Shown here one piece after another: positions 16,022 through 57,240 of a stretch of 64,000 nucleotides of DNA. Numbering within the stretch: position 1 is the first letter of the stretch; each line of letters opens with the position of its first letter. The notes beneath the pieces were generated by a model. The model was not told the origin of the DNA. It was given only the letters and a program-made list of their open reading frames with translations, and made no database searches. A program made the position numbers and the translations under genes. Source of the stretch: Thermothelomyces thermophilus ATCC 42464 (lineage: Eukaryota > Ascomycota > Sordariomycetes > Sordariales > Chaetomiaceae); the NCBI RefSeq assembly GCF_000226095.1, contig NC_016473.1:2294001-2358000 (forward strand). Direction: 5' to 3'.

Positions 16022-17400
16022 TTTGGCTGCTATGGAAGACTAGGAGAGGCCGGGGGGGGCGTCGAGATCAGTAAGAACCAGCAAACCCTGGGGCTACAGC
16101 AACAACGGCGGGATAGGCGATGGTGTCGCGAAAACAGTCATTGGCGGGGCAGAATAATTATTTCGCGGGGTGGAGGGGAAGGTGGGGCAGTCAATCAGCC
16201 CAGGTTCAGCGCGGCTCCTATCGATAAGCTTAATCGAACTCGCTCTGCAGCGGCCTAATTCAAACCAAGGGTAATTACCTTATGCATTTATCAGTATGCC
16301 CCAGAGCAACAAACTCCAACAACCTCCAAAAACCTCGTTTCTATCTGCCAATGTGTACCAACTAATCACAGGCGGTAACTTGCCAGTGGTCACACACCGG
16401 GGGGTTTACATTAACCTGTGTGACCCAGAATACCTCGTGACAGTTGTTCAGTGTCAAATTGCGTCCTCAACAACATGTCGGGCCGATAATCAGTCCTTTT
16501 CGGCACCCGAACGACAGCGCCCATCAAATTTCATTCCCCCCCGTTCCACCACTTTTCCCCTTCTATACTTTTCTTTGGGCTCTGAAGGAGAGAAAAAAAA
16601 ACAAATCACAGATTCATCAATCTTGAGTACTTGCTTCTTCACCATGAAACCACCATCTGTCGTCAAGACCCCTTTGAGCTTGTTCGCCTGGGAAGGGCGC
16701 AGGTCCGCAGTTCGAATCAGGCCCGGTTCTTCGGGAGTATGCTATCTCCGCGGGCAGGGAGTTGACACATGCAACAGGGTACGTGGAAACCCCGGCTTCC
16801 TGGCGACCGGCTGCCTGGCGACCGGCTTCCGCCCAAACGTTACTTTGGACTTCTGAGCTGCCTATCGCAGGGGTGTCGAAGCCCCATGCCTCGTGGAGCT
16901 GGAGGAACTCATAGTCTGGGCCCGCGCCGCATGGAAGCACGGCGGCGGGTGTTTGCGCGGCCGAAAGGTCGGGACTACCGTAACGATATAGGTTGGGCAA
17001 AGACGCTGGGACGGAACCTGTATAGCCATCGCAGACTTTCGATCCTGGCACGCCCCGCGCTGTGTGCTGCTGCATATTCGTGCAAACTTTCAAGACTACC
17101 AATCACCAGGTCGGCGGAACTTCTGGAAATGCTGAAACTCGGGTAGATTAGCAACATACGCAGTAAGAACGATGAGAAACATCATCTTCTCATATTTGAA
17201 GAGTTATTAAACCGCAGAGCGCAGGGGCGAATACGAACACCTATCGCCTGTCCAGCACTCTGTCTACTATCCAATGACCTCCATATATAAGGACATTCCC
17301 ACGAAGCTCCTTGTACATACGACCATACCCACCAGAAAGCACGGCATCCCGTCCGCTCTGCCCTAGTTAAGCTGGTGAGGGCCTTCATACCTAGGGCATA
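16022..17400. other. Intergenic between seryl-tRNA synthetase and the island
   Basis: Normal base composition, so still outside the RIP zone. Contains an imperfect direct repeat (CTGGCGACCGGCT, about 16800-16826) and a GTTCGAATC box (16711-16719) that I could not extend to a tRNA. Frames of 120-186 residues overlap one another on both strands, and I recognise none as a protein. Confidence 0.5.
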
Positions 17401-17647
17401 AGGGAAAACGCTATAAAACGGCTATAACCTCTCCGTAAATTGTTAGTACTCTCCGTTGTCGTTCCTTTTGGTAGCGTAATTCGGTTGGTTCCCATGTTTC
17501 GGAGGCCGCGGCGTAGTTAAGGAGCCGCTCCCTGTGGCCTCCTTCCCTATCCGAGGCACTTGTTATTTTTCTCAGAGATTATTTTTTTTAATACTAGATA
17601 ATAAAGAAAAGAAGGGAAAAAAAATCTACGTCTCTTTTCGGTTCGAG

Positions 17648-20341
17648 ATGACTTGGCGACGCTGTACTCTTGTTATCAATGAGCCTATAACCACCTTATG
17701 CGATCGTAGCGAGCGATAACGAAAAGCGGATAAAGACAATAAGCTGTTCGAGGACTCTAATTTCGACGATGTAGTGGATGTATATAAAAAATCATAGGAA
17801 GATCGACGACGCGTATAGTAATCGATATGGTAGTAAGTACCTATAGCGCTTTAGTCAAAGAATATCTTATTAATGATAACCTTAGCTTTGTTAAGACCTT
17901 TAAGAAGGAAGATTTTAACTAGGTCTGGCTTAGATTGTGCTAGGATAATAGGAAATCAAAGAAAATCATCAAATCATACTTTCGTGATTACGTTAAATCT
18001 TTATAGACAACTTGCCCTAGCCTTAGAGAATATAAATAGGATATTATCTAAACTATTACGACGGCAAAGACTATTATTAGTCACTAGAGAACTCTGCTTA
18101 TAGAAGCAAACAATACGATCCTTAGGGCCATAAGACGGAAGGATCCTAGCAATCGTAAGCTCTAGAAGTTAAGATAGGAAAAGGGAGAGTCAAGAGATAG
18201 GCCGGTAGCAGAAATAACTAAGGTAAGAAACTCGACAACGCCCCTTTTAGGCCGACATCTAGCGGTCAAGTAGGTCTTCTAGCTAACAAGTGACAAATAG
18301 TAGATTTAGAAGGAACTTGCCCCGACGTTCGGGTTAATACGTACGACGGAGCTTACCTTCAAAAAGACCGAAACTACGTCCGATGACCTCTTAATACTCC
18401 TTGATACGCTCTAGACACGCGCCGACGATGTGCCCTGCCAGCCTTGGGTCCGTATTACGGTTCACTAGACGCTAATCCTGGCAGGGTTTAGATTCCGACT
18501 AGGGTCGTTAATACAGTTCTATTACAAGCATATTCGGCTTCTAGTTATTCGAGATCTAGAGAACCCGGACCGAACCACACTCGCCGCTACTATCACAGTA
18601 GCCCACGACAAATGTCATACAGCAGATCCTTGCCTAGAGAAGTCGGGATATATAAAGTCTAGGTATACGCTATATACTTCCTAGTATAGAATTGTTCTCT
18701 TAGGATATTTATATATTTTGGTATATAGTATTAGCTTTACAGTCTTTCCGGTCCTATGCTAACTGCTGTGTCTTGTCAGCCTGATTGTAACCCAAGCAAT
18801 CGCTGACGATGCATTTAAAACCCCCTTCAAATCTCTTGATGAGATACTTACTCGGCCGGATCTCGAACATACCGACTCTCTAGAGCTCCATTAGAAGAAG
18901 GATATACTAGATCACAAGGTGTTTCCGATCTAGTACTTTAAGTACCGGGAAATATAGCATCGCCTATGGCCAGTGGCTAGCAGCAGAGAACTTTAACAGC
19001 CATACTCCCTCTGTGTTAGCGCTGGCGTAAAGCTAGACGGTAATACCTTCTGCTAGGCGATAATCTAGCATTATAGACTAACTCTAGGTAATTTTAGGTC
19101 CCCTAACGCTGGCATTACGCTCTCATTTCATATCTAACTCTAAAGAAGTTTTTCAACAAAACTACCTTCCTTAGCACATCCGTAAAGAGATCATGCTGAT
19201 CATCTTTAGTCTAGAAGTAGCAAGGATAAACGAGAAGCTATACGTAATGATACGACATACGACTATAAAGAGAGACCCGAATGTACCGATTTATCCGACA
19301 ATTAACGAGGTAAAGAGCCTTAAGAGCCGTCGAGATATATAAGAGCTAAAACAGGAGTACCTTGTAACAAGAGACGAAAGAGGTTCGGATGATAAGGAGA
19401 TAAAACGGGCTTATACAGCGTATTTCAGCCGTCGAGAGGAGCTCGTAAATCTGCTTATTAAGGATAGGCGACGTGAATACTTCGCTAAGGCAAATAAGCG
19501 ACGGGCACTTAGATAGTTAACCAATGACTTGTCTACACCAGTGGCAAAATTATAGAAGCCACGCACTTATATGGCGGCTTTCGACCAGACCGCTACACAT
19601 ATTAGCTACTTCCTTAGCCAGCGGGACCTTGGTAGGCGGCGGCACGCGCAGATTTTTTCGGAGCTACTTCTCTCGTACCTCCGCAACTAGGGCACAAAGG
19701 TAGAGGCCGCTATAGCCTTACTCGAGGAGACGAAGAAGCCATAAGCCATAAAGCAAGAGCCTAAGATATAGACATGCCTCTTATATCTCGCTCGGTTTCC
19801 CTATTGTAGTAATTTGACAAGGCATAACACAAAAGTCTATTTCTTGAAGGGTACGTTCGACGAGCCCTTCTCATGCCTACAATGCGACCGTCTTGGTAAA
19901 GAGAAGCATATAGTAGATGGGGTAGAATAATGGAGCAATTACATAGAGCAGTGCTATAGTATTCTCTACACGCCGTATCTACCGAGCTTAAGGTATAAGA
20001 GAAACGCTAGGGCAGCCTAACTAAAGCCTACAAAAACAAGATCTACCTGTTGCCTAGTCTGCGAAGGCATGTTTTATTCTAGAAATAGCTTTACACGACA
20101 CTTTAATAAGGAGCATGGAACTCTGTTCCAAGAGCCCTTCCCATGCTTTGAATACCATAGACAAGGTAGTAAGGTGGTCAAGATCGACGGCCGGGCAGCT
20201 TGGATAGAGTATGTCGCTAAGGTATATAAGCGCGATGGACAGACGATGGTTAAGATATCCGAGCTAGGGAAGGTGTTAAGGAGGAAGAAGAGAGAAGAGT
20301 ACGATAGAAGAGAAGGTGTCAAAAGAGTGATATCCGCTTAG
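17648..20341 (+). pseudogene. DUF3435 tyrosine recombinase with C2H2 tail, RIP-inactivated
   Basis: Reads in one frame for long stretches, broken by TAG/TAA at former CAG, CAA and TGG codons. In order: acidic N-terminus (about 17.70-17.80 kb); helical core-binding-like segment (17.83-18.2 kb); catalytic region with a GFRFRLGSLIQF box that probably carries the first catalytic Arg (about 18.48-18.53 kb); a KEVFQQNYLP segment that may hold the Tyr (about 19.15 kb). The long charged linker then reads IKRDPNVPIYPTINEVKSLK with K/R-rich helices ending RRALRQL, which I recognise from DUF3435 proteins. The tail is Cys/His: CLQC, then CLVC with HFNKEH, then PCFEYHRQG, where Tyr replaces Cys by C-to-T. 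This family includes Starship captains, but C2H2-tailed members also occur elsewhere. The start is uncertain. Confidence 0.75.
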
Positions 20342-20399
20342 AGGAGAAAGGGAAGAGGCGGAACAGGAAGTGGGGGAGGGTGTAACTATAGATCTGTAA

Positions 20400-21565
20400 A
20401 GTAACTTAGTCCCCGTAAAACTCGGAAGACAATCGAAGCATGATAGCATAGTTTAGCAGTATCTAGGGCAGTGAAATCATACTCTAACCTAGGAGTATCA
20501 TTTATGTTCTACTTGTCTTAGTCCTTCTTTACCATATATAAGCGAGTTTAGGAGTTACTCTATAGCTAAGAGCGCCTTATGGCCTACTAGAGTCGAGGCT
20601 AGCGAACAAGTGATATTACATTATATATCTAAAAAGCCTAAGACATACTCTACCTAATCTATATATTATCGAATAGCGCGTTCTGCCGAATCGTTAACGG
20701 TAATATACTAGCCCTGCTAGTTTCGAACTCAGGCCGTTATCTCGCAAGCTTATAGCTATAACGAGGAGTTTTGAGCGCTTTAGTCCGCTATGCTAGATGT
20801 TAGAGCTACTTTTATTATTGTCTAAATAATAGACTCTAGGCATTGCTATATAATTATATTACATCCCCTTGTATACGTATATGTTTATGCTGTCTCTTTA
20901 CTATAGCAACGCCCTTTGTCAGGGTCCGAGGTAACTCTTGTCTATTAGGGTTTGGTCGTAGAACTATCCGTATATTTTCCCTCTTCTAGTAGATTCTCTA
21001 TACCTCTTGGTACTTAGTAATCCTACTAGTATCGATTATATCTAAGCTAGCTAGGTCGGCCTATAAGCCGTGCTAGCTTATTAGATGCAATGGTTAGGTA
21101 GAATTAATAGGCATAGAGTTAGGAAGCTATTAAGTCTAGAGCAAGGGAACCACTAGATGAGGTAATAGGAGGAACAATTAGAAAAAAAGGATAAGCAAGT
21201 CTATAGATCGATTCTAACTAAACTGTCGAAAAGCGTCCTAGTAGTCAGGTATAAATATTAAAGGTATTATAACGACTTTGATAGAGATTTCGTCCCAAGC
21301 TCTATATAACTCCTATAGTTGCTTATCTCGTCGGATCGCTAGCCTCTAATAGAAATTATCGAGATCCCTCGCTTCGCGTCCAATCTCGTTCACGTCATGG
21401 TAAAATGCTACGTAGCTCTAGATCCGGTATAGCGCTATATTATACTATTTGGCTAAGGACTCGAAGAGGTCTTGTAGCGTAAAGCCAAACTTCTACCATT
21501 CCTAGCGCCATAGAGAATTATTATCGAAACTTGGTTGCCAGGGCTTGTATACGTCGGTATCCATT
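20400..21565 (-). pseudogene. Degenerate unknown gene
   Basis: A readable minus-strand frame begins MDTDVYKPWQPSFDNNSLWR near 21563 and continues through SYVAFYHDVNEIGREARDLDNF and RAWDEISIKVVIIPLIF. Stops stand where CAG or TGG would be expected. The composition is that of a real soluble protein, but I do not recognise the family. From about 21.2 down to 20.4 kb the frame fades and I cannot support an end point. Confidence 0.45.
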
Positions 21566-21931
21566 GCTTCTGTAAAGGTTAGGTAATGATAAGGAGGGAA
21601 ATGTAGTTTCTGTTAGCCGGTTAACATGATCTTAGCGAGCACGGCTACCTTGCCTAGGCAGCTCCTTAGCAACCCCCACTTAACTTAATAACCAACTAAT
21701 AGAATAGCTACCTTGTCTTGATACGGACACTAACTACGACGTCTATACATAAGTACGACATGTACAAGTGCCAACAGCACAACAGGGACATGGAAGGCGG
21801 TAAGCGTAGGTTGCGTAAGTTAGGCACCTTTTATAAGCCCACTGCCTAAGATGTTCCTTGATAGCGCCGAGTTCTCCGTTTTAGACACGTAGCCTCTGAT
21901 TTTCTCCACCTCTTACTTCGCTTTTCGAAAG

Positions 21932-23880
21932 AATGGATCAGCTCGAGGACCTGTCGGATATCCAGTCAACCTAGCCCTTTTCCTCTAACAATACGTCGTA
22001 TAAGGTTCGACTCGCCGAACTACTTAGCCAGCAGGATGAAGCAGCGACGCCGGCCGTTCGATTCCCAAGATACAACGTACAAGACCCGTCTCCAAAATGC
22101 TCTTAGCTAGCAAGATCCTACCAAAGCTTCCCAGCCCGAAAACGACGCCAGCCAAACCCTGGTAGGACCGTCACATTTTAGACCATCCTCACCTTAAGAT
22201 AACGAAGACATACGGTTGCTTTTCCTACCATCAGATCCGACCAGCTTTAATCTGAAACATATAGACGTTGAAGGCTACCGGAGTCTACCTATAGAATGGA
22301 TCGACCTTAGCTACAAGGGTGACGAAGACCTAAGTATTAAGGCGCTAAGGGTACTAGTAGTCGTGTAGTCTAGCTCGAGCGTTGGTTACAATGTTACAAT
22401 TAGCGGTACCTCTGCCACTACCACTGTCACTTTTCAAGTAATCTACGACCCTTCGAGTGATGAAGTCCCCCTTGTAAACACCACCAAGGCAAAGGGTACA
22501 GCTACCCTTATTGCTAAGGGGGGTCGGTTAGATGATCCCCGCTAACAAGAGATCCAGATATACCCTTTGTCAATAGCGTAACTCTGTCTAGGGGAGTGGG
22601 AGATCTCGACATCCAGCCACGGCTACACCACGAAGCTTCTAATCCTTCATCGCCGCTTCCTCTTACCCTCAGCCTACGTAAAATTTCGGGAGAAGTCTTA
22701 CGGGAAGAGAGGTATTCCGTCGACCCCTAGCGAGTCAGCAATGAAGCGTATTAGGGGCACGAGAGAACTCTTCAAGATCTATACACTCTTAACCATACGA
22801 ACCTAGGAAGTCGATATACCTGCTTCACACCTGCTCATTGACCTCTAAGCAGGTCAGAGAGCTGAGCTTATTAGATTAAGGCCTGGCGAACAGTATACGG
22901 TCACGAGGATTTGGAACTTGTCAGACTCTCGATCCTCATTAGTATAGTAGGCAATGATTTCTATACTTATACCTGCTCATTCATCGGTTATTGCCAAGGT
23001 GGTCAAGCGGACAGGTAATCCGAAATTCACTACAACGATATAGCTTCACGAAACAAGTATTTACTCAAAGCTTTGTACCGGCAGACTTCCTACCATCGTT
23101 CAAATATTAGGCCTAGATGCTTGTATATATAGCCTCTACTTAGAAGACATCGCGGCGCCGTCCCTTGCCTAGCGGGAGTGGCGGAGGCAAGACGATCACT
23201 TCAAGGGTATACCAGCTAACGCCTACCGAATCCTAAGGGACATAGCTTCAGCCCTAAAGTTTATACACGATAACGGTATTTCCTATAACGATATAAAACC
23301 TGCCAATATCCTCTACCGTACTGCTCGTAGCACTGTGCTCATCGACTTCGGGCTAAGTAGCGTAAACAAGCAAGACTCCGAATCACTCTATACCTTAGGA
23401 ACGCCCTAGTACATCCTGCCTAAATTCCTTACAGACCCCGGAGTCGGCCGCGGCCTGCCTAGAGACGTTTAGGCTCTCGGCGTGGTAGGGCTGTACTTGC
23501 TTTACGCTCTACCACTTCCTAATAAGGGGGCGGAGTAGCAAATTTAGGCGGTTGCTTCTCGAGCGAGCGCAAGTGCGTATACGGCCACGAGAAGCATAAT
23601 ACAAAAGATCGAGACAGTGAAAGACAGGCAGACAAAGCTTAACTCTAGCCCTGTTTATAAAGTTGTCAGATGTATAACAGAGCTAATACGCTTAGAACGT
23701 GCTACGATAGATAAGGTCGTGGAGCTCTTAGAGAAGCTAGAACCCCGTGATAGGCCGACGGCAGAGGAGCTACTCGCGGACGTATGGTTCACAGAGGAAT
23801 CGCCGGACACCCGGGACCCGCTTCCTAGGGAGATTAGGCACCCTGAGAAGGCGAAGCAGTATGGAGAGGAAGGACTATAG
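21932..23880 (+). pseudogene. Ser/Thr protein kinase gene, RIP-inactivated
   Basis: Begins MDQLEDLSDIQST and carries an N-terminal region of about 330 codons ending in a basic stretch before the kinase fold. The kinase catalytic loop reads HDNGISYNDIKPANIL (about 23265-23312), with YND where HRD is usual. The Mg-binding DFG is present in LIDFGLSS (23338-23361), followed by TLGTP at the activation segment. The C-lobe ends RDRPTAEELLADVWF. Premature TAG/TAA codons interrupt the N-terminal part and the lobe after GTP, all one transition from sense codons; the last 260 bp are open. The N-terminal portion shifts frame once or twice, perhaps at introns. The substrate cannot be told. Kinase genes of this type are common cargo of fungal accessory regions. 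Confidence 0.8.
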
Positions 23881-25780
23881 GCAGATATAGATTCTTTTTC
23901 TAATATTAAGGCTCTGTCAAAGAAAAACTGGGTTTGGAGTTGCCCCCTTTTGTCCGTATTGTTAAGAAAATAAACTCGAACTTAGCATCGAGTTCTAACC
24001 CTAGTAGCTTTTCTGATTCTGGCTTAGTGGTGCCAAAGTCACGTACTAGGGTTATTTACCCTGGAGGAGGTGTAATGTGGGCGATATGTAGGGGACGAGG
24101 AAAAGTAGGGCGTAGCATAAGTAAGATAGGGAGGAATCTACATTGCCTGGCGAGATAGGCGGGGAGACCCCGCTATTTTAGTGCTAGTATATCTCCCCAC
24201 CACCAGGAAGTAATATAGATCTCCTACAACATTGGCCATAGGCTGCGGGGTAGCGAGGCTCAGATAATTAGACTACATTCGGCGGCCATGCTTGGTAAGA
24301 TTTAGAGCTTGTTAGTTACATATATACAAGGGTGTACTTTGTATAGACGACATCGCTACGGATTTTCAACCTAATCAATCGGTTAGTTCGGATATAGTCA
24401 AGTGCCTAGCTATTGTATTTCTATAACACAAGGGCTAAGCGGCGGTATTACTTTGGCTAATATTGACTGTTTTTTAGCGTAGTTTAGGGGAAATCGCACG
24501 CCCTAGCAGAGTTATACACGTATATACATAGATTGTAGGTAAGGTTTTGTTATAGCAGGGCCCTAGAAGCCCCCGAAGATGTTTCAGGTCAGGTTCAGCT
24601 CCGTTCGGCATAGCGGTGCCACTTCCGGTCCGAGTACTCGGGTAGGTCATAGGACCCGCGGGGCTAACAGTGGTCTAGTTTCGAAAGAGGTTAAGGATGC
24701 TCTAAACTCGGTAGAGTAGTAGCATCTTCAAATCATTCTTACGCTCGTACATTTCACCCCCTTGAGTCATTTCAGGAGCCAAACCTCTTGGTCAGTTCCA
24801 ACATGAAAGTTGATTCTCGGAGCCTCCATTTCCGGTATCCTGCTTATAAATCCGCACGTACGCTGTCTAGAGGCGCTCCAGGCCAATCGCTCCCTGCCAT
24901 ATACTATGACGTGAACCAACTGTCCTACAAAGGAGGGCTCTCCTACCTACCTCCCTAGCTCCAATATTACACTTTTCATTAGGCAGCTACTTCATAAGTC
25001 ACCTTGTAGCTATAGGGCAAAGTTCTACAATCTTAAGCAAAGTGCTTCTGAGGGCGTTTCTGGTATAAAAGCGGGACACACCTAACTAGAGATTGTCTAG
25101 AATCAAGTTAAGCGGTACCGCTTTCGTATATCATTCATCGTACCTTCCTAGCACGCCCTACTGCGTTTAAGTTCCAGCCTCCCAGCACCACTGCTCGCCT
25201 AATCCCTCTTGCTTCTAAGATAGGCGACCCTGTTCCCTGTCCTAAGTGCTACACACTTATTTCGAGCTCGGCAAGTGCTTAGTATGTCACGTGCAATACG
25301 TATGTTCTCCTCATTACTAAAGATTTATACGCTCGTACTAAGATTGAATGGCATTGGATAGAAATGTGTAGAAGGCGAAGATGAAGGCCGATAATAAGGC
25401 TAAGAAGGGAAAGGATGAAACTAAGAACGACAAGGAGGGCACTTAGCCAATGCCAATCAAGAAGTGATGTTTTTCTAACGGCCATCAGATTCGTATATAG
25501 GGGGGCTACGGCAATTAGGAAGACCGTATGGATGTGCAAGTCTAGTGAGATAGGATATACGAGGAGAGAGTGCTTAAGCCTAGGAGTACTTGTATCTATT
25601 CTTACAAACCTAACTTAGATTGTTCTTACAAGCTTGTTACTAGCTAGCTACCCCTTAAAATGATATATAATCAAGATTACCTTAGCTTGTCATCTCACTT
25701 CTTTATATACCGGTTCAATGTGATTAGGGCTTATAGACATAACGTATTCCTAGATTTCGAAGAGAGTGTCGTTTTTACTA
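23881..25780. other. Degenerate sequence with fragments of unknown genes
   Basis: Short frames persist on the plus strand at 24804-24960 and 25130-25618. The second contains CPKC-x6-9-spaced Cys/His (PVPCPKCYTLISSSASA) and a basic helix RRRR-x-RPIIRLRRERMKLR, so a zinc-binding protein is possible. No family can be named. Confidence 0.3.
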
Positions 25781-25784
25781 GTAA

Positions 25785-26719: not shown

Positions 26720-26779
26720 TGAAGCGTCTGTTTAGCGTTATTAGGAGGTACTAGGAGGACCTTTATAATGCCTGTTAAT

Positions 26780-38120: not shown

Positions 38121-38121
38121 G

Positions 38122-45778: not shown

Positions 45779-46208
45779 TGTGACGAACCCAACTCAGACT
45801 TCCTTCTAAAAGGGTTTAGGAACGAAGGAATATATAGGACTGAAACGATAAGTCGTCTAAGGGATTTGGTAAAGCCAAAGGGTTTATAACAACAGAGTTA
45901 TCTCGTACAGTAGTCAGGTCGTGTACCTTAGGTGTACTGTGTTTGTGATTGCTATTGCTGGTGAACTCCAGAGTCCACTAGAACGAGTGACTATCTAGCT
46001 AATTATACTGTCGAGTTCCTTTCTATAGCCGTCCTTCCTTGAGTTCCTAATCGTGCGATCGCTACTACGATCCTGCGATCGTTCTTTGGGTGCTCGCTTC
46101 GGTCGAAGTGCGATCACTGCGATCACTTTGTAATTAGTCCCTAATCCTACACTCCTTGATTGGTTCCGCGCATCCCACCTGGTTGCTCTATACGGCCAAA
46201 TCGTGACA
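45779..46208. mobile_element. Solo LTR with perfect 5-bp target duplication
   Basis: 430 bp from TGTGACGAAC to TCGTGACA, flanked by GGTAT on both sides (45774-45778 and 46209-46213). Shares its first 60 bp and several internal blocks with the 427-bp LTRs at 28.8 and 36.0 kb (for example GGTGAACTCC and AACGAGTGACTAT), but the 3' half differs. It is therefore a related subfamily. LTR-LTR recombination has removed the internal part. Confidence 0.9.
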
Positions 46209-46213
46209 GGTAT

Positions 46214-47600
46214 AAAGAACATACCTAGTATACAGACTTTTAAGAGGGCTTCGTTAAGTCTCTTAATACTAGGTTATCTAGTCATCGTGACGGTATATTA
46301 AAGGAGAACGATGTGATAAGCAATAGGTAGAAATATACGATAAACGGAGTCTGTTATTCGAAGAAAACAGTTTTAGAAGAGGAGAAGGGAGGAGATAGGA
46401 CATTAAATAGGTATAAGAAATATCTAACACCCGAGTTCGCTATGAGGGACTAATTATAATGTACTTGTGCGAGAAGCCGTAGGGGAAGGGTATACCTATC
46501 ACGCATAGATAAGGTCTTTTCTACTCCTGGCGTAGTTACGGTAGTCGCCTTCCTAAGCATACTATCTTCTTGATAACATCTGGCTCTTTTTAGCCCTCAA
46601 GTCCAAAAGTCGGTCACCCCGCACCCCGGTCTTATCACCCCACCTAATCACTCCGCCTAGTAGCCGAGGCAGAAAACATACAGTTAGCTACCTAGTACAG
46701 TTCCGTGTATAACAACACAGACCCACCTACCGCTAGATTTTTATGCTTAAGCATTAGAGCCTGGCACGAGCATGTAGTGAAAAATTGGAACTGGATCCGG
46801 AAGGGTGGGCAAGGGATCTTTGGAATGGGCGGTGTTAGCGAGCTAGAGCAGCCGTGTTCTTAGGTAGGCGCTTTTATAGAAGGACGTTGTCAATTGGCGA
46901 GAGAGTATCTTCTTCCCCCGATCACACTTTAACTGATGTACCCTCCCTACTTCGAATGACTTGTAGTTGTATATTCTTAATGACGATCCTATCGACCGTG
47001 GCCAAATCGCCAGTCACTAGCTAAAACTCGACGCCTTCTGGCAGGGATCTTCCGACCTATGTCTTATTGCGTTGTGATATTGCACGAGCCTTAGATGATT
47101 AGTTAGAAGCTAAAGAAATGCAAAGTAAAAATGAAGGGTTTATGTACTATATAGCTCTGATAGCGAACATTTCCTGTTCCTAGAGCCTTTAAAAGATATT
47201 TCCTATCGTTAAATTTGTATATCTGCCCTTCTTAAATATATATTCTCCTATCTATCCTGTCGAGGAACAAGCATTAAAGAAGTGCGATAAAGAGAAGTAA
47301 CGCTCTTGTAGTAGATACTAGCTAGAACTTACATATAAACCTTTTCTTCTTTGTGACCTAGCTCTCTTCCTTTTACAAGCTGGCTACGCTTCGATTGTAG
47401 GAGCTTACTTATAGCGCCCTATAGAGAGATAGACCTGACTATAAAAGGGAAAGACATTACATGATTACCGGCATCGAATGTCAAAGCTAGTAACGTAAGC
47501 TTCCTATCTTATTCTTCGGTCTTATATTTTTATTAGACGTCGACACTATATTCGTGCTACGGTGTGCCAGGGCCTAATTACACAGAAGCCAGACATCTTC
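46214..47600. other. Degenerate sequence, nothing recognised
   Basis: Stop-dense on all frames with no protein-like stretch longer than about 40 codons. CCCC/ACCCC-rich patch at 46615-46670. Confidence 0.4.
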
Positions 47601-48300
47601 CTTCCAAATTTGTCGATCAACCGAAGACTAACCATGTATAGCGTTCCTCTCGGCGTTCAGTTGTGGCGCTCCCGTTACGCAAATTGTACCTATATAGCCG
47701 ACTACGGCGGTTCAGGTCTCTCTCCGTAATCAAAAGCATGGTACGCCAGGCTCTCAATCGACGAGAGTACCTCAGGTGGTGGCTCAAGTGCCGAGGCGCA
47801 TAGGTTACGGTTCGCGAACTACTTTACCAAGGCAGCTTCGTAAGGCTCTAAGATTTACCATAGGGCGTGTACTACGTCTAATCTAATGATCTCCAATTTC
47901 TGTAGAGGCTTAATTAAGTCCCTATATACCAAATTCTCTTGTCTCTGTATCCTAGTATTAGAGTCAGAGCTAATCTGCTAGACTTGCTTGCTATTCGGCA
48001 TCTCTGTAGCCAATTTGTAATTGCTTAACGTTATCCTTGCTCGAGAACCTGTATTTGCATCACTATACCATGACGCTACCCAAGGATTTAGCAGATTATT
48101 CCCAAGCACCAAGCATGTCAAGAAATAAGATTCAATACCTTAAATATGGCCCTAGGCTCTGTTTAGAGATCGCCCTCACGAAAAACGACGATGCCCTAGC
48201 TCTTCTAGCCTTGAACGGCCCCTGCTCTAAATCTCTTACGCCAGTGCTTGAATGGATTAAAAACACTAAAAGAGACGACTATATAAATACTTAGGGAGAG
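47600..48300. pseudogene. Fragments of unknown genes
   Basis: On the minus strand, 47.90-47.62 kb reads LEPYEAALVK and EPPPEVLSSIESLAYHAFDYG and then FGRKMSGFCVIRPWHTVARI. On the plus strand, 48037-48294 is open and reads SMSRNKIQYLKYGPRLCLEI and LALLALNGPCSKSLTPVLEWIK. Both look like real protein; neither is recognised. Confidence 0.35.
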
Positions 48301-48439
48301 AGAGCCCGATTGCTCTCGAACGAAAGGTTAAACACATCGTCTCTCGCCGCCATTTTCGGCCTCTTACGCTAGACGCTAACCCTCCTTTAGCACCGTTCTC
48401 GCGAGGCAACGCATCCAGCCAGATACAAATCTAGAAGAT

Positions 48440-50076
48440 AAGATAATCAAGCAGCTCGAGACCCAGCCTATCTTCTAGGAATAACTGGTAGCTAAGGTTA
48501 AAGGCATCTATACTAGGCTCGTAATGCTCGAGGAGAAATGTATTAAGATACATAAACAATGCCCGACCAAATTGAACAAAGGCCAATGGGAGGCTTTAGT
48601 CTCCCTTCACCGGAGCCTGCTTCAGGAGCACTACGACTTCTTCACCGCTTCGTAGCACCCCTTGGCAAGCCCAAAGCTCAGGGAACTGCCTACCAAGTAC
48701 ATAATGTGCGAGAGGATGTAGCGTCATAGCATTCACGGTTTTCTTGAGCTCCTACGGAAAAACCTACCGGCGAGCTAGGACTTCATGCTTACGTTCATTC
48801 ACCTGGCTTACTCGATGATGGCCGTTCTTTACGAGACTCTCCCTGCTTTTGAGGACGCCTAGATCGAGTGCTTGGGAGATCTTGGCCGATATCGTATGGC
48901 GATCGAAAGCGATATCTAGGATCGAGAAGTTTGGGCTTCTGTAAGCCGAGACTGGTATTCTCAGGCTTCCGACAAGCAGCCGGAGGTTGGGCGGCTCTAC
49001 TACCATCTCGCTGTCCTAGCTCGTTAAGATCCTTGGAAGCAGCTCTTCTATTATTTGAAGTCTCTATATGTGGGTAAACCCTTTACACCAACCAAAGAGG
49101 GTATTATGACTCTCTTTAGGCCCCTTATCTTAACACCTAACGCGCCGTAAGAACATCTCCAGCCGATTGAATTGAGCTTTGTGAAAGCGTATGCTATTCT
49201 CTTCAGTGGTAAGCAGCTAGATAAGCTAGAACCTACATTGAAGGATTTTCTCTAGAGGTTAGACACGTATATCACCTGCTTAGGATATTAGTTTTGCTCA
49301 ATAGGGTAAGTAGAAGTGATTAAGATCTAAGTTATCTATTTCGAGTTCTAATACTAATATCTTATATCAAGATATTGCATAGCTATCGCTAATATCTGTA
49401 TAATATACGGTTATAATAACGAAAGGAGTCTGATCTCGGCGACCCCTTCAAGCAATTAGGGCCCCTATGCTCTTTACCTATTTATAGAAACTTACTACAT
49501 TGTCTACCGCCGCTTTAGCGACCTTAACGTTCTATCTTTCTTGTACATCACCTTAGTTTTCATCTACCACCTTACCTTCAGCCCCGATATCATTGCCTAG
49601 GTCGCTCCCCACTTCCCTTAGAAGCTTACCTCTATTATACTAAATGTATTGTTAAATTAGCTCTATACGTTGTCGTTAGGCGTATTACAGGACTTGGCTC
49701 TTCTCCTCGATAGGGAAGATTTTCGTTTGAGTGGGGAGGTAAACGTAGCAGGGAAGACAGAAAGAAGGAGAATGCTTCTTAGGAGATAGGCACCAAGGGG
49801 AAGAAAAAGCCACTTGCGGACGATTACGCAATGAGAGGGTTTCTATAGACTAAGATATACTTTTCTAATGGGTTCTTTGTTACTAGTGAGAGGTTCAACG
49901 CTTAGGAGAAGTATCTCGAGCATCCAGATATGTTAAAGGAAAGACAGGAGCAGGTGATTTGGCTTGGTTTATAGATTGCTAAGAGGGGGGAAGGGAGCTG
50001 GTTGCTCTTTGAAAAGGAGGCTAAGAGGTTTGACGCCAATCCGAGTTTCGAGGCGAGTTTCGAGGCTACAATCTAA
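48440..50076 (+). pseudogene. Est1-type DNA/RNA-binding-domain gene, RIP-inactivated
   Basis: One frame runs through EALVSLHRSLLQEHYDFFTAS, HSIHGFLELLRKNLPAS, DFMLTFIHLAYSMMAVLYET, IECLGDLGRYRMAIESD, VWASVSRDWYSQASDKQPEV and GRLYYHLAVLAR (about 48570-49025). The C-terminal part at 49.7-50.07 kb includes KYLEHPDMLKERQEQVIWLG and GSWLLFEKEAKRFDAN. This is the Est1/Smg7-type TPR and helical RNA-binding module, known from telomerase regulation and nonsense-mediated decay; many filamentous fungi carry extra lineage-specific copies. Stops occur where CAG, CAA or TGG would be. The start is not found, and a less readable gap (49.27-49.6 kb) may contain an intron. Confidence 0.85.
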
Positions 50077-50329
50077 ACTGGTTGAGTTTGGTGCTCAAAT
50101 CCGTGTATGGTTTAGGTAAACAATTCAATGAAAGAAAAAAGCTCCATCTAATATAGCTCAATCATGCCAGATGCTATCCTATAGTTGCTATAAGTTATAG
50201 GAACCAGAAACAGCCCCTTCTTCTACTCCCTTTGCGAGCTAGATATAGAGTTAAGTAAACTATAGCGAATACCGTTGCGTAACTTAATCCCCGATCAGAT
50301 CCAAAACAGGGTTATTCACCCCCCGAAAA

Positions 50330-50810
50330 CCGTTACTAAGACTGTTAGTGGTCATTCGTTGTTATGAAGAAAACGAGACTTATATAATCGTCTCGGTGTA
50401 ATTAGAATATATAAGGAGGAATAGTAGTGACGGTTTAGAAAGTAATGCCTAGTGCCGAGACACTTTACGACGCTCTAATATATGTCGACGTATTAATCTC
50501 CCTTCTAGTGCGTCCCGGTAGATGTTTATAGCGATGCTATCGTCGCTAATGCCTTGTTTCCGTTGACCAATTTTGATCTTTCTTTCCTTTCCGATCGCCT
50601 TCTTTAAGGTATCGAAGACCTGCATTAACCGAATATATACAAGCCACTATAGCACGCCATCTGTTGTCGAGATAGTTCGTTTAATTGTTTAGAATGTATA
50701 AGTGAAGCGTGAGTCTCGGCTTGTAATGCGAGGGGGAATGGTGGTTCGAGACAGGAATAGGATCTAGTCGTCCTAGATGCTAGCGCAGCGTAAAGCAAAA
50801 GCCTCAACCG
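50330..50810 (-). pseudogene. Degenerate unknown gene
   Basis: Minus-strand frame QVFDTLKKAIGKERKIKIGQ then RQGISDDS-like sequence and AINIYRDALEGRLIRRHILERR (about 50625-50450), preceded by a second open piece at 50807-50625. Basic and helical; family unknown. Confidence 0.35.
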
Positions 50811-51077
50811 TTATATGTTAAATAAGGTCCTTCGATAATAGTTATACTGTAATTGTTTGTTTATCCTTATAACTTATATCCCTGTTCAGATCTATTATAA
50901 AGTGAGCATCCGTACTAGGATCTAAGGGGCATAAAGTCACGGCAGTTCGCGTTAAAAATACGAAACCTTCAGTGGCGTATTAATACTATCGTAGTCAGGA
51001 AAATGGCACAGTAGAACTGTCGTCTTCTTGCAATTTCTAGATATACCGAGGCGGCATTTACAACAGAACATGCTTAG

Positions 51078-51161
51078 GCGGCGTAACTTGAGCGGCGCAA
51101 CTTGAGCGGCGCAACTTGAGCGGCGCAACTTGGGCGGCGTAACTTAGGTGGCGCAACTAGC
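51078..51161. repeat. 14-bp tandem repeat, six copies
   Basis: Units of GCGGCGCAACTTGA, with C/T and G/A variants, head to tail; further degenerate GGCGTA units continue to about 51215. Confidence 0.9.
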
Positions 51162-51398
51162 GAGGCTAGACGGCGTATCACAAACAAGCGGCGTAACTTA
51201 AGCTAGTATGGCGGCGTATCCTAACTCTTTAGTATTTAGGAAAAGCGGATTTATAGAATTACTAATCCTATCTGCTAACGACCCTGCCTACCTTTAGGAG
51301 ATATAAAACCTACAGGTTAGTACACTCTAAAGGATCATTAAGTAAGTGCTATATATTGTACCTTTTGAACAGCTCTAACTTGCTTGACAGATACGAAG

Positions 51399-51960
51399 AT
51401 GGAAATATACGAAGAGATATCAGCAGATCTTACGGCATGGCTGGCAGAGCAGGAACAGAGGTGGTTTACTTTGATGGCCGCCAATGAGACCATGCCCTCA
51501 GCGTCCACTCCGACACAACAACTCCCGGCTTCACCGTTTGGGTTCTTTTGTTGGGACCATGGGTGCAATGGGCGCCGGTTTTCGAGCCCTAGCAACCTCC
51601 GTAGACATCATCGCGAATACACACAGAAGCCTCCCGGTTCTTTAGCAAACTTGGCAGGGCCTCGCTGCTAGGACCACAGGTATAATGGCCGGCTATTCTC
51701 GTCTACTAGCAATCTTTATAGGCATTATCGTGAGCGTATCTGGAATAAGAGGACGACATGTCCTAAGTGTCACACCACCTTTAAACCAAAGCAAAACAAG
51801 ATGGCGTCGGGTAAACGACCTGAGGTACCAAGGTATTAGGAGCATGGATGTGACGGCCGGGCATTCCCAAAGTATAGCGATCTCTATAGACATCAACGAC
51901 ATATGTTAGCACGGCAAGTGACCTGTCCTTAATACAGCTATATATTTAAACGGTCGGATA
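51399..51960 (+). pseudogene. Tandem C2H2 zinc-finger gene, RIP-damaged
   Basis: From about 51399 the frame reads [18 protein letters not shown], then a Cys/His repeat [21 protein letters not shown] second degraded copy with the same spacing follows (YNGRLFSSTSNLYRHY), then CPKCHTTFKPK and a third (GCDGRAFPKYSDLYRH). The C-x4-C-x12-H spacing is visible in copy one; in later copies Cys and His are replaced by Tyr or Arg as RIP would do. Probably a DNA-binding protein. Only a few transitions separate it from an open frame. Confidence 0.7.
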
Positions 51961-53400
51961 GTATTTAAGCCGGTCGAATGTTTAGTTTGAATACTAAGGC
52001 ACCCGATAGAATGGCCGGTCGTTGTTCGTGTTAGGCATGATAGTTAACAGTAATAAGGATATTAGCGAAATTTGTTGGTATTAGAAGCGTATATCACTAG
52101 TTTCGATGCTCTTCTCTTGTTCGTTCCTTTGTAGATACTTCAACAAGGCACTTTTGTCCTTTCGAAGCCACCGCTCCAAAGCTCTCTTGTATACTTCCTT
52201 GACTTCTACTATATCTAGGAAAGATCTTTAAGAACAACGGTTTCATATAGTATTCTAACTACTAACTTAATCAACTCATCCCATCAGGGCTAGCTTCGAC
52301 CTAGTAAATTACCTATTATAATATATACTACCCGTAGAACCTTCTATTTAGGTCTCCTTCTCTTGACTATCTCTAGCGTGTTCTCTATTATTCTCTATAG
52401 AGTCAGGGGTAAAAATAATCGGTAAAGGAAACGAATTTGACTAGAAATGTGGTTAGAGTCGCTAACAATAGTCAAAATATAGAACCTACGATCTCTTGAA
52501 ATGAAGGCGGCCACTATAGACCCGGGTTCGAGGAATAGACGAAAAACCGACAATTCGTCCGAATCACGAGGTACACTTGTACAGCGTAAAGCCGATGGTA
52601 CTCGTCAACTTTTTTGATGAGTGTCTTTCTTCGCTTTCGAAGCTAAGACAAGTGACGCTTTCGCGAAGTCGTGACGGCGTTCTAGGCCATTTCATCAGCT
52701 TATATATAAAGGCTGGAAAATGTAGCCTACAAGCCTAGGATACCGTAAGCTAGCAACAAATTCTCAAAATACGGTGACCTTTTTTCGTATTAATAACGGT
52801 TTAAATTAGATACTAGGATCCCTAACTGCTAAAACTCCGAGGCTCTGTACCTACGATAATAGATTTCCTCGACGCCAGATTTACTTTGTTAGTTTAATGT
52901 TGGTTTTATCACTTGTTCTGTCACCGTTGATCATAGTAGGGAGCCACTTAGACGCTATATTAAAGTCCTTCGCCTGAGCCCTACAGGTGGTATAACCTCG
53001 GCTAAGTGGCACAGCCCTAGCTAATAAGCCGCGCCGTATGCAGGAGTTAGTGTGGGGTACATCACGAGCAGGGCGTATAGAGTTACAATACCAACTTCTT
53101 CAGACTAAATATAGTAATCATGCTTCATCCGCTATTCCAACACGCATTGTAACCTAATCAAAGCGCGTTCCGTTCTACTAGGTCGCCCGATCATACCTAA
53201 CGTGTTTGTTCCCGATACAAACTAACATCTTTTGCACAAACCAACATCTTCACACAAAAATAGCTCATTACAGGGCTAAAGAAGACAACATATAAATTAG
53301 CAACGGGTAGGATAGCTAAGCTAAAGAAATCTAAATTGGCTCTATACCATCGCTATATCTACATTAACAATTTCAAGTGAATAGAGTGCCTCTCCGTTAA
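51961..53400. other. Degenerate sequence, nothing recognised
   Basis: Stop-dense, with C/T-biased patches at 52090-52390. Near 52562 ATCACGAGGTACACTTGT resembles the core of the 124-bp satellite. No gene is supported. Confidence 0.4.
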
Positions 53401-53408
53401 CTACAACA

Positions 53409-54257
53409 ACTAGCGACGGGAGCGGTGATCCTCTATTGGCAGACCCTAATATACTTCTAACGCCGCTAGAACCTTTCCATCCGTCATTCACTACAGGCCA
53501 CGAGCGGGGAGAAGCTCTCTTCAACTTCCCCAGCCTATATAGAGACCCTCCATTTCCCGCCTCTGACACTGACCCGCGACCAAATTTGCCGTGTCTCGAC
53601 CTGTTTCAGCTAAATAGATCCGATCTCCCTAATCCTTCAGCTGATCTTAACCTCCTCACCCCTAATTCCATTAGGTCGTTCGGAGAATGTTTATCGACCC
53701 TGCCCTATTTGACCTTCGACCTTCTAAGCCAGCCCGAAGAGTAGTCTAACCTACCAAGCCAGCCACTAGATCCGACATCCAACTCCCTAAGTTAGCTAAC
53801 AGACCTAACAGGTGGACCCCGGGAGCGTAACTTGCCTCGCTCTAACGAATTGCTGCCGTCAGATATTCTAGCGAGAAAGTTCTAATGCACCTACCTAGGG
53901 TGTTTCAAGCTATACACCTGTAGGTATAGTGCTATGGTTCATATGAGTCACGTATATGGATACGGCTATCCGCAGATGCTTTTTCCTGAAGAGAAGTATC
54001 CTTGTCCTATTGTAGGATACTCTAAGTCATTCTTTCGCAGAGGGAATATTGCCATTCATATCCTCGCTTACGACCATATCTCTGTCGTTAAATGTGAGAC
54101 CTGTGAGAAAACGTTTACACGGAAAACAGACCTTCGGAGGCATTACAATTCTATCTATTCACAGGAGCGAAAATATTCCTGTCAATATTGTTCGATGCGA
54201 TTCAATCGCAATGATATTCTTACACGGTTAGTCGTCTCTTGTAAATCGAAACGTTAA
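53409..54257 (+). pseudogene. C2H2 zinc-finger transcription-factor-like gene, RIP-damaged
   Basis: The N-terminal 100 codons are Pro/Asp/Leu-rich (DPNILLTPLEPFHPSF, PPFPASDTDPRPNLP), as in activation regions. After three RIP-type stops come the fingers: CTYLGCFKLYTC, CPIVGYSKSFFRRGNIAIHI, CETCEKTFTRKTDLRRHY and CQYCSMRFNRNDILTR, ending CKSKR (54240-54257). Several zinc-binding His/Cys are now Tyr (GY for GC, HY for HH), each one C-to-T or G-to-A away. Upstream of 53436 no clear ATG is visible. Confidence 0.75.
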
Positions 54258-54550
54258 TAACTAACATATCTCTTCAGGCACATTGCAACTTGCCATTTAC
54301 AATAAGTAATACAAGGAATATAGGTCGCCGGGGGGTAAAGGAATATATAGGACGTCTTAGGCCAGACTATCGGAACTTTGGTGTTAAAACAGCCTACCTA
54401 TCACATAGGCCGACTTTGATCTTCGTACTTTGTATATGCCTCTAGACTATTATAAAGACTGCGATTGTCCTCTCATCTATCATGATTGCAATATCATTAC
54501 AATATTCTCATCCTACCGATTTTTAATATTCTGTGACTTTCTCAGGCACG

Positions 54551-56403
54551 ATGGCGAAGAATAAAGAAAACGAAATGAAGAGCCTTGCACGCCAAATACA
54601 ACGGCATATACAGAAGTTTCCTGAAGCCACATTTACCGCAGCCGAACTTGAAATTGTAAGAAGGGTCGATTATAATCTAAACTTCTACGAGGATAAGACA
54701 GAAAAATTAGGGTCGAACGAAGTAGAATGGGCTAGTCCACAAAAGCGAAGAAGGGACATTAACAAGTTACGGAAATGGCTCTCTCAAACCGGCCAAACAC
54801 CGTAGGATACCTCATCGGCACCTACAAAGCCATAGGCTAAGCTATAATAACCATAACACTAGGATTCTCCTGCCAGCTAGTCAGTACAACAGCGTCAATA
54901 ATAGGGTACTACGGCTAGCCAGTCAATACAGCAGCCTCAACGACAGGGTACTACGGCTAGCCATTCGGCACAGTAGCCTCAACAGCAAAGACCTCCTACT
55001 AGCCAGTCGACATAGCAGCCTCAATAGCAAAGACCTCCTACTAGCCAGTCGACATAGCAGCCTCAACGACAGGGTACTACGGCTAGCCAGTCGGCATAGC
55101 AGCCTTAATAGCAAAGACCTCCTACTAGCTAGTCGACATAGCAGCCTTAACGATAGGGTACTACGGCTAGCCATTCGGCATAGCAGCCTTAACAGCAAAG
55201 ACCTCCTACTAGCTAGTCGACATAGCAGACTTAACGACAGGGTACTACGGCTAGCCAGTCAGCATAGCAGCCTCAATAGCAAAGACCTCCTACTAGCCAG
55301 TCAACATAGCAGCCTCAACGACAGGCTACTCCGGCTAGCTAGTCGACATAGCAGCCTTAGTACCAAGGTTTTTTAAATGGCCAGTCAAGACAGCAGCCTC
55401 AACAACAGAGACCTCCTGCTAGCCAGTCAATATAACAACCTCAGCGCCAGGATCGTCTAGCCATTCAACACCAGGTACCTCCAGTTATCCAGCCGGTATA
55501 TCAGCCCCAACGTCAAGAACTTCTAACTAGCCAGCACCAGGGGCCTCCCCAATCACAGGGATATTCTCAGCATCAAAGCAACCAACACGCACAGTCCCGT
55601 CAACAGCTCCAAGAGCCATATAATCTTTACCAGCAACAGAAGCGGTACGCAGGCCAAGAGCACTCCCAGGAACAAATGAACCTCGACCCCACATTTGGCA
55701 AGAGGGATTATAGTCGTATCCGTTCAAATACTTCGACGCCACCGAATGCTTCAACACCACGACCCAAGAGAAGACAAGACAGTCAGAATAGGGTGACCAA
55801 GGAATACTACGCTCCGCAATTCGATACCTCGCTACCGCAATTCTCCCAAACACGTTCCCCGCAAGATTTCTTATATGAGTCAGATCAAGCGTCCTAATTC
55901 TCTTAGTCACGTGTCTAACAAGTTTCTATATACGACTTAGATCCAGCTACCTAAGTAAATACCTCTCTACTAATTACAAATGGCATTGTAACGCTTACTC
56001 TTGAGGAGGACTACGGAGTCTAATAACTACAATTCTATTTAATATCACCTTAGCTAATCTATTAATCTGATTTTCAGCAACCATACTTGGAACCACCCTA
56101 ACCGTAACCTTAGCGCCCTCGTGATCTAATATACTAATCGTACTCCTGACAGCCATACTCAGAACCGTCTTAGCGCCATCCTCGACCAATCTACTAATCA
56201 AACTCCCGATAGCTATACTCAGAACCACCCCGACTACAACCTCAATATAAAGAACGTCAGTATTCGGCGCCTATACAACCACCTTACCCTCTTCTACAAG
56301 AGCCTCGACAATCTTAGCCACGGCTATCTCAGTCTCCATTACCGAGTATTGAGGAAGGCGAGGAACACGACTTAGAAGAATTCGATGACGAAGATGAGAT
56401 TTA
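54551..56403 (+). pseudogene. Glutamine-rich repeat protein gene, RIP-inactivated
   Basis: Starts MAKNKENEMKSLARQIQRHI, then a folded-looking region to NKLRKWLSQTGQTP. After that the same frame runs through about 15 units of 42 bp (54885-55530), alternating QPQRQGTTASQSA and QPQQQRPPTSQST types, with Q codons variably CAG, CAA, TAG or TAA. The C-terminal part is Q/S/P-rich (QQLQEPYNLYQQQKRYAGQ, SRIRSNTSTPPNASTPRPKR) and ends acidic (EEGEEHDLEEFDDEDEI). The frame is preserved for 1.85 kb, with stops almost only at Gln positions. A nuclear or prion-like low-complexity protein is plausible; family unknown. Confidence 0.75.
54885..55530 (+). repeat. 42-bp coding tandem repeat, two alternating subtypes
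   Basis: About 15 head-to-tail 42-bp units inside the Q-rich gene. Subtype A contains GGGTACTACGGCTAGCCA, subtype B AGACCTCCTACTAGCCAGTC. Units keep frame. Confidence 0.9.
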
Positions 56404-56443
56404 ACCACTGATAGCACCTCTTATAAGATCTAAGAACTCGAAA

Positions 56444-57240
56444 ATGTTTAGGCAGGCTTATATTGTACAACAGTCCGCAAAACTCTACACTCCCCTGGCG
56501 AAGTCAATCCTAGTCGAATTTAAGGCTGGTAAAAATACTTACTATAGGGACATTCTCTATAAGGTAGTTAACTTACGATACCTCTATACCGTGGTAAACA
56601 CAGGTAAGGAGGTTAAGAAAGCCTTTCTCCTAAAAGCAAAGGACTTCCCTAAGGAAGTAGATCTACTAGCCGCATTTCATCTGCTATTAACCAGTGGGGA
56701 TCTATTTAATATTAAAGGATTTGTTATTAATACTATTGCTATGGTTAACGAAAGGAAGAGGGTAATCTACATAGTTAAAGGGGCTACTATAAATAATAAG
56801 AATATATAGGTTAGTACAATTTCTATATTAAAGACCAAGTAGTCGGCTTCGTTAGTTATCGCCTAGGTAAAGGCATAGCATAAGGAACAGAAACAACTAA
56901 ACTTTCTTTAAGGCTAAGGATTTTAGAGTTTATTACTATATCTTAGAATTTAAGGTCAGTTTTCAGTTTAAATAGGATAGTAACTACCTATTTATATCGA
57001 GCTAGTGCCGACTCTCCCAGCATAGCTACATACCTCTTAATTAAGCCAAACCTCCGTCTAGTCAGAGAGGAACGATGGCTACCATTCCGAGTATCTAGAG
57101 CATCCGAGTATTCGCGGTCACAGCAGACGTATCTATCCTCCGAGGAGCAATGGCAACGGGCACAGCCTCAACGACAATAGTCTCCCTCTGGTCATATATA
57201 AAATAATTTACATACGTGGAAAAGACAGCTCTACTCACAG
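56444..57240 (+). pseudogene. Open fragment and degenerate tail at the island's right end
   Basis: 56444-56809 is open for 121 codons (QAYIVQQSAKLYTPLAKSIL, YRDILYKVVNLRYLYTVVNT, DFPKEVDLLAAFHLLLTSGD), with no recognised family. It may continue beyond its TAG, a likely former CAG or TGG. After about 57.0 kb CA dinucleotides become common again. Confidence 0.4.

What the first reader, a model, noticed from the sequence alone, without database searches (positions are those of the whole stretch)
17400..57240. Forty-kb RIP-killed island with a DUF3435 recombinase as first, inward-facing gene
Size, sharp borders with RIP-free genes, mixed cargo (kinase, APH, Est1-type, zinc-finger genes) and the edge position and orientation of the DUF3435 gene match the layout of Starship giant transposons. 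If correct, this is a fossil Starship that RIP erased, later invaded by a gypsy element, with cargo still legible.
Basis: inference. Interest (0 to 1): 0.75.

Follow-up and report, generated by a model that had tools for sequence, protein, structure and literature searches.

The report
RIP-killed Starship inside 5S gene
A 40-kb stretch of a filamentous fungus's chromosome is the mutated corpse of a giant mobile element of the Starship kind that jumped into a ribosomal RNA gene, and both halves of the interrupted gene are still there to show exactly where it landed.

Summary
The borders are now exact: window 17,382-57,722 (40,341 bp), not 17,400-57,240. The element sits inside a 5S rRNA gene: its 5' part is at 17,315-17,381, its 3' part at 57,723-57,781, and TGAGGG is duplicated on both sides. 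Joined, the flanks match an intact 5S gene elsewhere in the genome over 129 bp with no mismatch and one gap. The DUF3435 gene (about 17,650-20,340, + strand) starts about 270 bp inside the left border and points inward. It is wrecked by stops, but reads 57% identical to a Corynascus DUF3435 protein and 80% to a 403-residue protein of Thermothelomyces heterothallicus. Three more truncated left ends lie at the same position of other 5S genes. Cargo relics are a protein kinase (firm) and APH-type, Est1-type and C2H2 genes (Pfam scores below cut-off). A 7.55-kb LTR element and a 430-bp solo LTR inserted later. No terminal inverted repeat was found. Captain family could not be tested; the 5S target suggests Enterprise. 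It is a new, well-delimited, dead member of a known kind: RIP-mutated and 5S-targeting Starships are each already in print.

The parts
17315..17381 (+). 5' part of the interrupted 5S rRNA gene (67 bp), including the left copy of the target duplication
   Evidence: Rfam RF00001, 37.6 bits, gathering score 38; 67 of 67 bases identical to the intact 5S copy in L009
17376..17381 (+). left copy of 6-bp target site duplication TGAGGG
17382..57722 (+). the element, 40,341 bp; about 32.3 kb without the LTR element and the solo LTR
17382..17430 (+). left terminus, alike in four left ends in this genome; holds two AAAACG boxes 10 bp apart (element positions 24 and 34)
17651..20338 (+). captain-like DUF3435 gene, broken: 34 in-frame stop positions in the stretches aligned to relatives, 24 of them opposite Q, W or R in at least one relative and 5 opposite gaps only; frame changes near 17,815-17,884 and 19,041-19,094 look like introns
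   Evidence: the first base is approximate (relatives align from 17,648-17,657)
22987..23790 (+). protein kinase domain relic
   Evidence: PF00069, 73 bits, E 3.4e-20
25916..26810 (-). APH-type phosphotransferase gene relic (Pfam match 26,126-26,548); 85% DNA paralogue with normal GC at G000:C4:57787-58679
   Evidence: (21.8 bits, below cut-off)
28824..36377 (.). nested LTR retrotransposon, 7,554 bp, flanking 5-bp repeat AGGTA/AGGTG
45779..46208 (.). solo LTR of a related element, exact 5-bp flanking repeat GGTAT
48441..50044 (+). Est1-type gene relic (domain match 48,947-49,261); 64-70% DNA paralogues on C1 and C6
   Evidence: (16.5 bits, below cut-off)
54090..55376 (+). C2H2 zinc-finger gene relic (finger at 54,090-54,149; same-frame open stretch 54,726-55,376)
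   Evidence: 19.4 bits, below cut-off; no useful relative
56992..57239 (.). short dispersed repeat, 33 listed relatives of about 75-250 bp at 69-82%; perhaps a small later insertion
   Evidence: 39 of 50 candidates scored
57660..57722 (+). right terminus; an inverted pair of AAAACG boxes lies at element positions 40,281 (-) and 40,295 (+), window 57,662 and 57,676
57723..57728 (+). right copy of target site duplication TGAGGG
57723..57781 (+). 3' part of the interrupted 5S rRNA gene
   Evidence: 30.8 bits; 57 of 57 bases, 57,723-57,779, identical to L009; the only orphan 3' half among 23 found

Best explanation
A 5S-targeting Starship, dead. A captain-type tyrosine recombinase (DUF3435) recognised a fixed position in a 5S rRNA gene, about base 62-67, and inserted the element there. 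That cut the gene in two and duplicated TGAGGG (borders, duplication and position shown; recombinase action inferred from the family). The element carried several genes in about 32 kb. Later a second copy of the element, or most of it, must have been present in the same nucleus, because RIP mutates duplicated DNA (established knowledge of RIP). RIP mutated nearly the whole element, including the captain, and left the flanking 5S halves untouched. The partner copy is no longer in this genome (inferred: none found). LTR elements inserted into the body, and they too carry RIP. Elsewhere in the genome three related insertions have lost their bodies and keep only the 5S half plus a few hundred bases of the left end.
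For: Split 5S gene: Rfam finds two 5S fragments in the window, at 17.3 and 57.7 kb. Both halves match the same intact copy, 67/67 and 57/57, with a 6-base overlap; joined flanks match it over 129 bp with no mismatch and one gap. Of 30 5S 5' halves found (self included), 26 are followed by their 3' half and 4 run into a left end of this kind (search counts are lower bounds). The four left ends align above all 500 shuffles in each of six pairs (scores 8 to 96, highest shuffle -8), and four intact 5S controls score -27 to -36. Captain: 57% over 412 aa to Corynascus P0001, 50% over 388 to Parathielavia P0002, 80% over 403 to T. heterothallicus P0004; P0001, P0002, P0003, P0008, P0011 and P0012 exceed the PF11917 cut-off, P0004 does not. 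R of box I and the Tyr box (VFQQNY) are legible; PYSLR reads PYSLC (box names recalled). RIP. 5S targeting by Enterprise-family Starships and direct repeats of 2-12 bp: PMC12153272 passages.
Against: No terminal inverted repeat above shuffles. PF11917 on the relic itself is below the cut-off. The duplication is 6 bp, whereas PMC12153272 associates 5S targeting with more than 6. RIP is weak at 57,123-57,522. No second copy of the body was found, so the trigger of RIP is inferred. The APH paralogue on C4 has normal GC although it was probably similar enough to draw RIP, so the history is not fully explained. No labelled captain was compared. The AlphaFold model of a relative was poor (pLDDT 43) and gives no fold evidence.
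Confidence: 0.92

Rival explanations
1. A composite island: a small DUF3435 element (a 'solo' captain) inserted into the 5S gene, and the rest of the 40 kb accumulated later by independent insertions and duplications.
For: Two later LTR insertions are certain, and a short dispersed repeat lies near the right end. PMC12134995 notes that DUF3435 genes are more often solo than in a cargo element (passages). The three other left ends here carry at most a captain start.
Against: The 5S 3' half and the exact 6-bp duplication lie at the far end, 40 kb away, so the whole stretch now sits between one pair of insertion ends. RIP-type composition runs through 77 of 80 windows.
Confidence: 0.06
2. A tyrosine-recombinase element outside the Starships (Crypton-like or a new YR clade) that also uses DUF3435 and 5S rDNA.
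For: Captain clade membership could not be tested against labelled captains; no inverted repeats.
Against: DUF3435, first-gene position, inward orientation, multi-gene cargo, direct repeats and 5S target all agree with Starships. Cryptons are a few kb (recalled).
Confidence: 0.04
3. AT-rich heterochromatin such as a centromere core or a repeat graveyard, with the DUF3435 gene there by chance.
For: AT-rich, mid-chromosome (2.3 of 5.45 Mb).
Against: It lies exactly between the two halves of one 5S gene, with GC-normal flanks on both sides.
Confidence: 0.01

Closest known systems
Starship Osiris (Enterprise family) of Aspergillus fumigatus, PMC12153272 (passages seen)
   Same: Captain-led giant element inserted in 5S rDNA and predicted to fragment the gene; mean sizes from about 38 to 138 kb.
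   Different: Here the element is mutated throughout by RIP and its captain is broken. The 6-bp duplication is short for a 5S target. Captain sequences were not compared.
RIP-affected Starship of Gaeumannomyces tritici type A, PMC11905480 (passages seen) and PMC12134995 (passages seen)
   Same: A Starship under 100 kb that has undergone extensive RIP.
   Different: Target site and borders of that element were not in the passages seen; it is described as gene-poor. Here the target is a 5S gene, and captain and part of the cargo are still legible.
Captain homologues P0001-P0016
   Same: Same DUF3435 subfamily with zinc-finger stretches towards the C-terminus in the longer members; the closest is P0004 of Thermothelomyces heterothallicus, 80% over 403 aa.
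   Different: Open frames; none is named as a Starship captain by its source; their surroundings could not be fetched.

Membership tests
Starship | DUF3435 tyrosine recombinase (captain) as first gene at the 5' end, facing inward | tested here: met
   relatives align from about 17,650, ~270 bp inside the border, + strand; Pfam on the relic itself is below cut-off
Starship | Short direct repeats flanking the element | tested here: met
   TGAGGG at 17,376-17,381 and 57,723-57,728
Starship | Empty site | tested here: met
   joined flanks match intact paralogue L009 over 129 bp with no mismatch and one gap; a paralogous, not an allelic, empty site
Starship | Site preference of the captain lineage | tested here: met
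   four left ends at the same 5S position
Starship | Multi-gene cargo and size of about 20-700 kb | tested here: met
   40.3 kb (32.3 kb without LTR elements); kinase firm, APH, Est1 and C2H2 below cut-off; size range from PMC12153272
Starship | Terminal inverted repeats (18 of 20 high-confidence Starships in A. fumigatus, PMC12153272) | tested here: not met
   best local score of the ends 6-8, reached by 9-78% of 2000 shuffles; the feature is common, not universal. An AAAACG box recurs at both ends
Starship | Captain groups with named captains in a tree | not testable with these tools
Starship, Enterprise family | 5S rDNA target | tested here: met
   association seen in PMC12153272
Starship, Enterprise family | Captain sequence falls in the Enterprise clade | not testable with these tools
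   reference captain library not available
Tyrosine recombinase fold | Catalytic core by structure | tested here: inconclusive
   model of P0003 has mean pLDDT 43; not searched further

The most novel reading that the evidence does not exclude
This genome shows how a RIP-competent host clears a 5S-targeting Starship lineage: one whole element mutated almost end to end after a duplication whose partner is now gone, and three others reduced to left-end scars in 5S genes. The AAAACG boxes, 10 bp apart at the left end and both kept in three of four copies (the fourth keeps one), with two more near the right end, would be the captain's binding sites, in place of inverted repeats.
Probability: 0.3. 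Interest if true: 0.6.

Novelty: new member of a known kind. Interest (0 to 1): 0.5.

Why it matters
Starship borders usually rest on an empty site from a second strain (as in the workflow described in PMC12153272). Here dispersed 5S genes supply the empty site inside one genome, so dead Starships can be found and delimited in single reference assemblies of RIP-prone fungi, where a captain search can miss them (the whole-genome DUF3435 search did not list this one). Orphan halves of 5S genes are a simple handle for a census of fossil Starships, and so for how often RIP ends them.

Tried and rejected
Terminal inverted repeats: ends compared over 20-80 bp against 2000 shuffles, not significant. 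Right ends of the three other insertions: no 5S 3' half found in L006, L007, L008, L032, L033 or L042 by Rfam, and the genome search with the right end plus 3' half found no other orphan among 23 rows; the bodies are lost or replaced, in L007 by an LTR-flanked stretch. Four weaker 5S hits (L026-L029) looked like further interruptions but are whole divergent 5S genes. Protein search with the zinc-finger gene near the right end gave one weak frog zinc-finger hit and was set aside. Sequence search of solved structures with P0002 gave nothing useful. Structure prediction of P0003 was poor, so no fold search was made. A weak SRF-TF match at 52,559-52,642 (19.1 bits, cut-off 26) was not counted as cargo, nor a weak Transposase_28 match (14.3 bits, cut-off 26.2) inside the captain frame. 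The minus strand of 17,400-20,400 and the nested LTR element were not scanned for domains. No tRNA gene was found in the window. Searches were crowded by LTR copies (4 of 759 and 39 of 1626 candidates scored), so the LTR-free parts were searched again. Centromere: rejected because the island ends exactly at the 5S halves; no chromosome-wide AT map was made. Literature: searches that paired Starship with the likely host's names or with 5S rRNA found no paper, nor did DUF3435 with 5S rRNA; that library holds open-licence papers only, and the founding Starship papers asked for were not held.
Full report
What was checked. The window is G000:C2:2294001-2358000 of a 38,744,216-base genome in 7 contigs. 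From size and contig number I recall Thermothelomyces (Myceliophthora) thermophilus; no call names it, but the nearest captain relative is from the genus Thermothelomyces, a member of the Chaetomiaceae. Composition changes sharply between flanks and island: GC 0.550 and 0.523 in the flanks, 0.434 inside; 77 of 80 windows of 500 bp inside have a composite RIP index above 0, against 6 of 46 outside. TAG/CTA, TAA/TTA and ATA/TAT are enriched more than threefold over the flanks. Compared with its GC-normal paralogue on contig 4, the APH-type stretch shows 77 C>T/G>A and 23 reverse differences.

Exact borders. A genome search with the left part of the island returned 33 places, 29 of them sharing a ~60-130-base stretch that begins near 17,315. 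Rfam shows why: it is the 5' part of a 5S rRNA gene, and a second 5S fragment lies at the other side of the island (37.6 and 30.8 bits, both below the gathering score of 38, as fragments may be). Against the intact 5S copy in L009 the left fragment matches 67 of 67 and the right one 57 of 57 bases, and the two matches overlap by six bases in L009: TGAGGG, present on both sides. Joined flanks match L009 over 129 bp without a mismatch and with one gap. So the insertion is 17,382-57,722, 40,341 bp.

More insertions of the same kind. Counting self, 30 5S 5' halves were found (29 and the window's own; a lower bound). Of these, 22 have a 3' half and 4 more were shown whole, which leaves 4 interrupted: the window, L006, L007 and L008. 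The sequence after the cut is alike in all four (47, 47 and 45 of the first 80 bases identical between the window and the others; global scores above every one of 500 shuffles in all six pairs; four intact 5S controls score far below). Among 23 rows found with the right end and 3' half, the window's is the only orphan. The three others keep only a few hundred bases: L006 holds a piece of the captain start, L008 a 31-base match to the captain start before unrelated DNA, and L007 runs into an LTR-flanked stretch. Target duplications of these three could not be measured, as their right ends were not found.

The captain. Frames +1 and +2 from about 17,650 to 20,340 align to DUF3435-type proteins: P0001 (57% over 412 aa, and 51% over the upstream part), P0002, P0003, P0008, P0011, P0012, and P0004 of T. 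heterothallicus at 80% over all its 403 residues. The second search, which scored 7,993 candidates, lists 16 such proteins; the named hosts are Corynascus, Parathielavia, Chaetomium, Thermothelomyces, Staphylotrichum, Lasiosphaeria and Achaetomium, Sordariales as I recall. Thirty-four stop positions fall in the aligned stretches; at 24 of them a relative has Q, W or R, 5 fall opposite gaps only, and 5 are opposite other residues. Box I (GFRFRLGS) and the tyrosine box (EVFQQNY) are legible, and the arginine of PYSLR reads as cysteine. These box names are my reading of tyrosine recombinases, recalled. Pfam scores the damaged frame at 18.7 bits, under the 25.8 cut-off, and the genome-wide family search did not list it. 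Six of the seven relatives scanned pass the cut-off; P0004, which matches only the C-terminal part, has 23.3 bits and does not. A structure model of P0003 was too poor to use.

Cargo and later insertions. Pfam with X at stops found a protein kinase (73 bits), an APH-type domain (21.8, cut-off 23.2), an Est1 DNA-binding domain (16.5, cut-off 22), and a C2H2 finger (19.4, cut-off 25.2). The APH and Est1 relics have paralogues in the genome that pass the cut-offs with 36.8 and 47.5 bits. A 7,554-bp LTR element lies at 28,824-36,377 with LTR stretches 91% alike over 425 bases, flanked by AGGTA/AGGTG, and has four near-full-length relatives; a 430-bp solo LTR at 45,779-46,208 is flanked by GGTAT on both sides. 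Without them the element measures about 32.3 kb. A short repeat at 56,992-57,239 has 33 listed relatives.

Mechanism. Shown: one insertion footprint in a 5S gene, a target position shared by four left ends, a captain-type gene at the entry end, and RIP-type composition confined to the insert within this window. Inferred: that the captain made the insertion, and that a second copy once shared the nucleus and drew RIP. Searches with the parts of the island free of the LTR pieces found, elsewhere in the genome, only matches of up to about 0.9 kb at 64-85%, apart from the 5S and short-repeat hits; 36,383-45,773 matched nothing but itself. LTR relatives at 87-88% were found by the same method. So the partner is probably gone, though the search skips very common words and scores only the best candidates. 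The APH paralogue argues against host genes as the trigger: apart from C>T/G>A changes, 55 differences remain in about 890 aligned bases, yet it is not AT-rich. Later arrival of that paralogue would explain it equally well.

Ends. No inverted repeat stands out. AAAACG occurs 24 times in the element on either strand, 4 of them in the two 80-bp ends, where 0.095 are expected (Poisson 3e-6, not corrected for the choice of this word among those examined). The left pair is kept in L006 and L007 with the same spacing; L008 keeps the first and has GAAACG at the second. Whether these are recombinase sites is inference.

Known and new. Starships of the Enterprise family target 5S rDNA in A. fumigatus (PMC12153272, passages), and a Starship with extensive RIP is reported from Gaeumannomyces (PMC11905480 and PMC12134995, passages). 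For this host, no paper turned up in the searches made. It is a new member of a known kind. Membership in Starship rests on five features met, one common but not universal feature not met (inverted repeats), and one not testable here (captain tree). Membership in Enterprise rests on the target alone and stays open.

Noticed in passing
L004 (G000:C6:2824543-2827923) and L024 (G000:C6:2930781-2940780): Two further DUF3435 genes with normal GC, about 112 kb apart on contig 6, with Est1-type paralogues between them (C6:2849990 and C6:2898444): a possible Starship region without RIP. The region could not be fetched whole.
   Followed up: partly
L022, G000:C4:57787-58679: APH-type gene near a contig end, 85% identical to the RIP-mutated cargo copy and itself with normal GC; probably similar enough to have drawn RIP, so it may have arrived later.
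   Followed up: partly
window 25,916-26,810 against L022: C>T/G>A differences fall on CpA/TpG (38 of 77) but also often on CpG (21 of 77), so RIP here may not be limited to CpA.
   Followed up: no
   Followed up: partly
G000:C5:3584993-3585265 and G000:C5:3600921-3601166: Two pieces 83% identical to window 28,260-28,532 and 23,904-24,143 lie 16 kb apart on contig 5; perhaps another relic or a source of cargo.
   Followed up: no
window 36,951-37,041 and 42,743-42,831: An imperfect inverted repeat of about 90 bp, 76% alike, inside the body.
   Followed up: no
G000:C4 about 4,621,264-4,659,900: A block with nested copies of the same LTR element beside one of the orphan 5S left ends.
   Followed up: partly
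L006-L008: Three orphan 5S 5' halves with left-end scars of related elements; L008's surroundings have normal GC.
   Followed up: yes
window 7,817-10,495: WAPL-type protein gene (344.9 bits) left of the element; the flanks look like ordinary gene space.
   Followed up: no
5S genes of G000: Diverse 5S genes coexist, 74-100% identical to the L009 copy.
   Followed up: no
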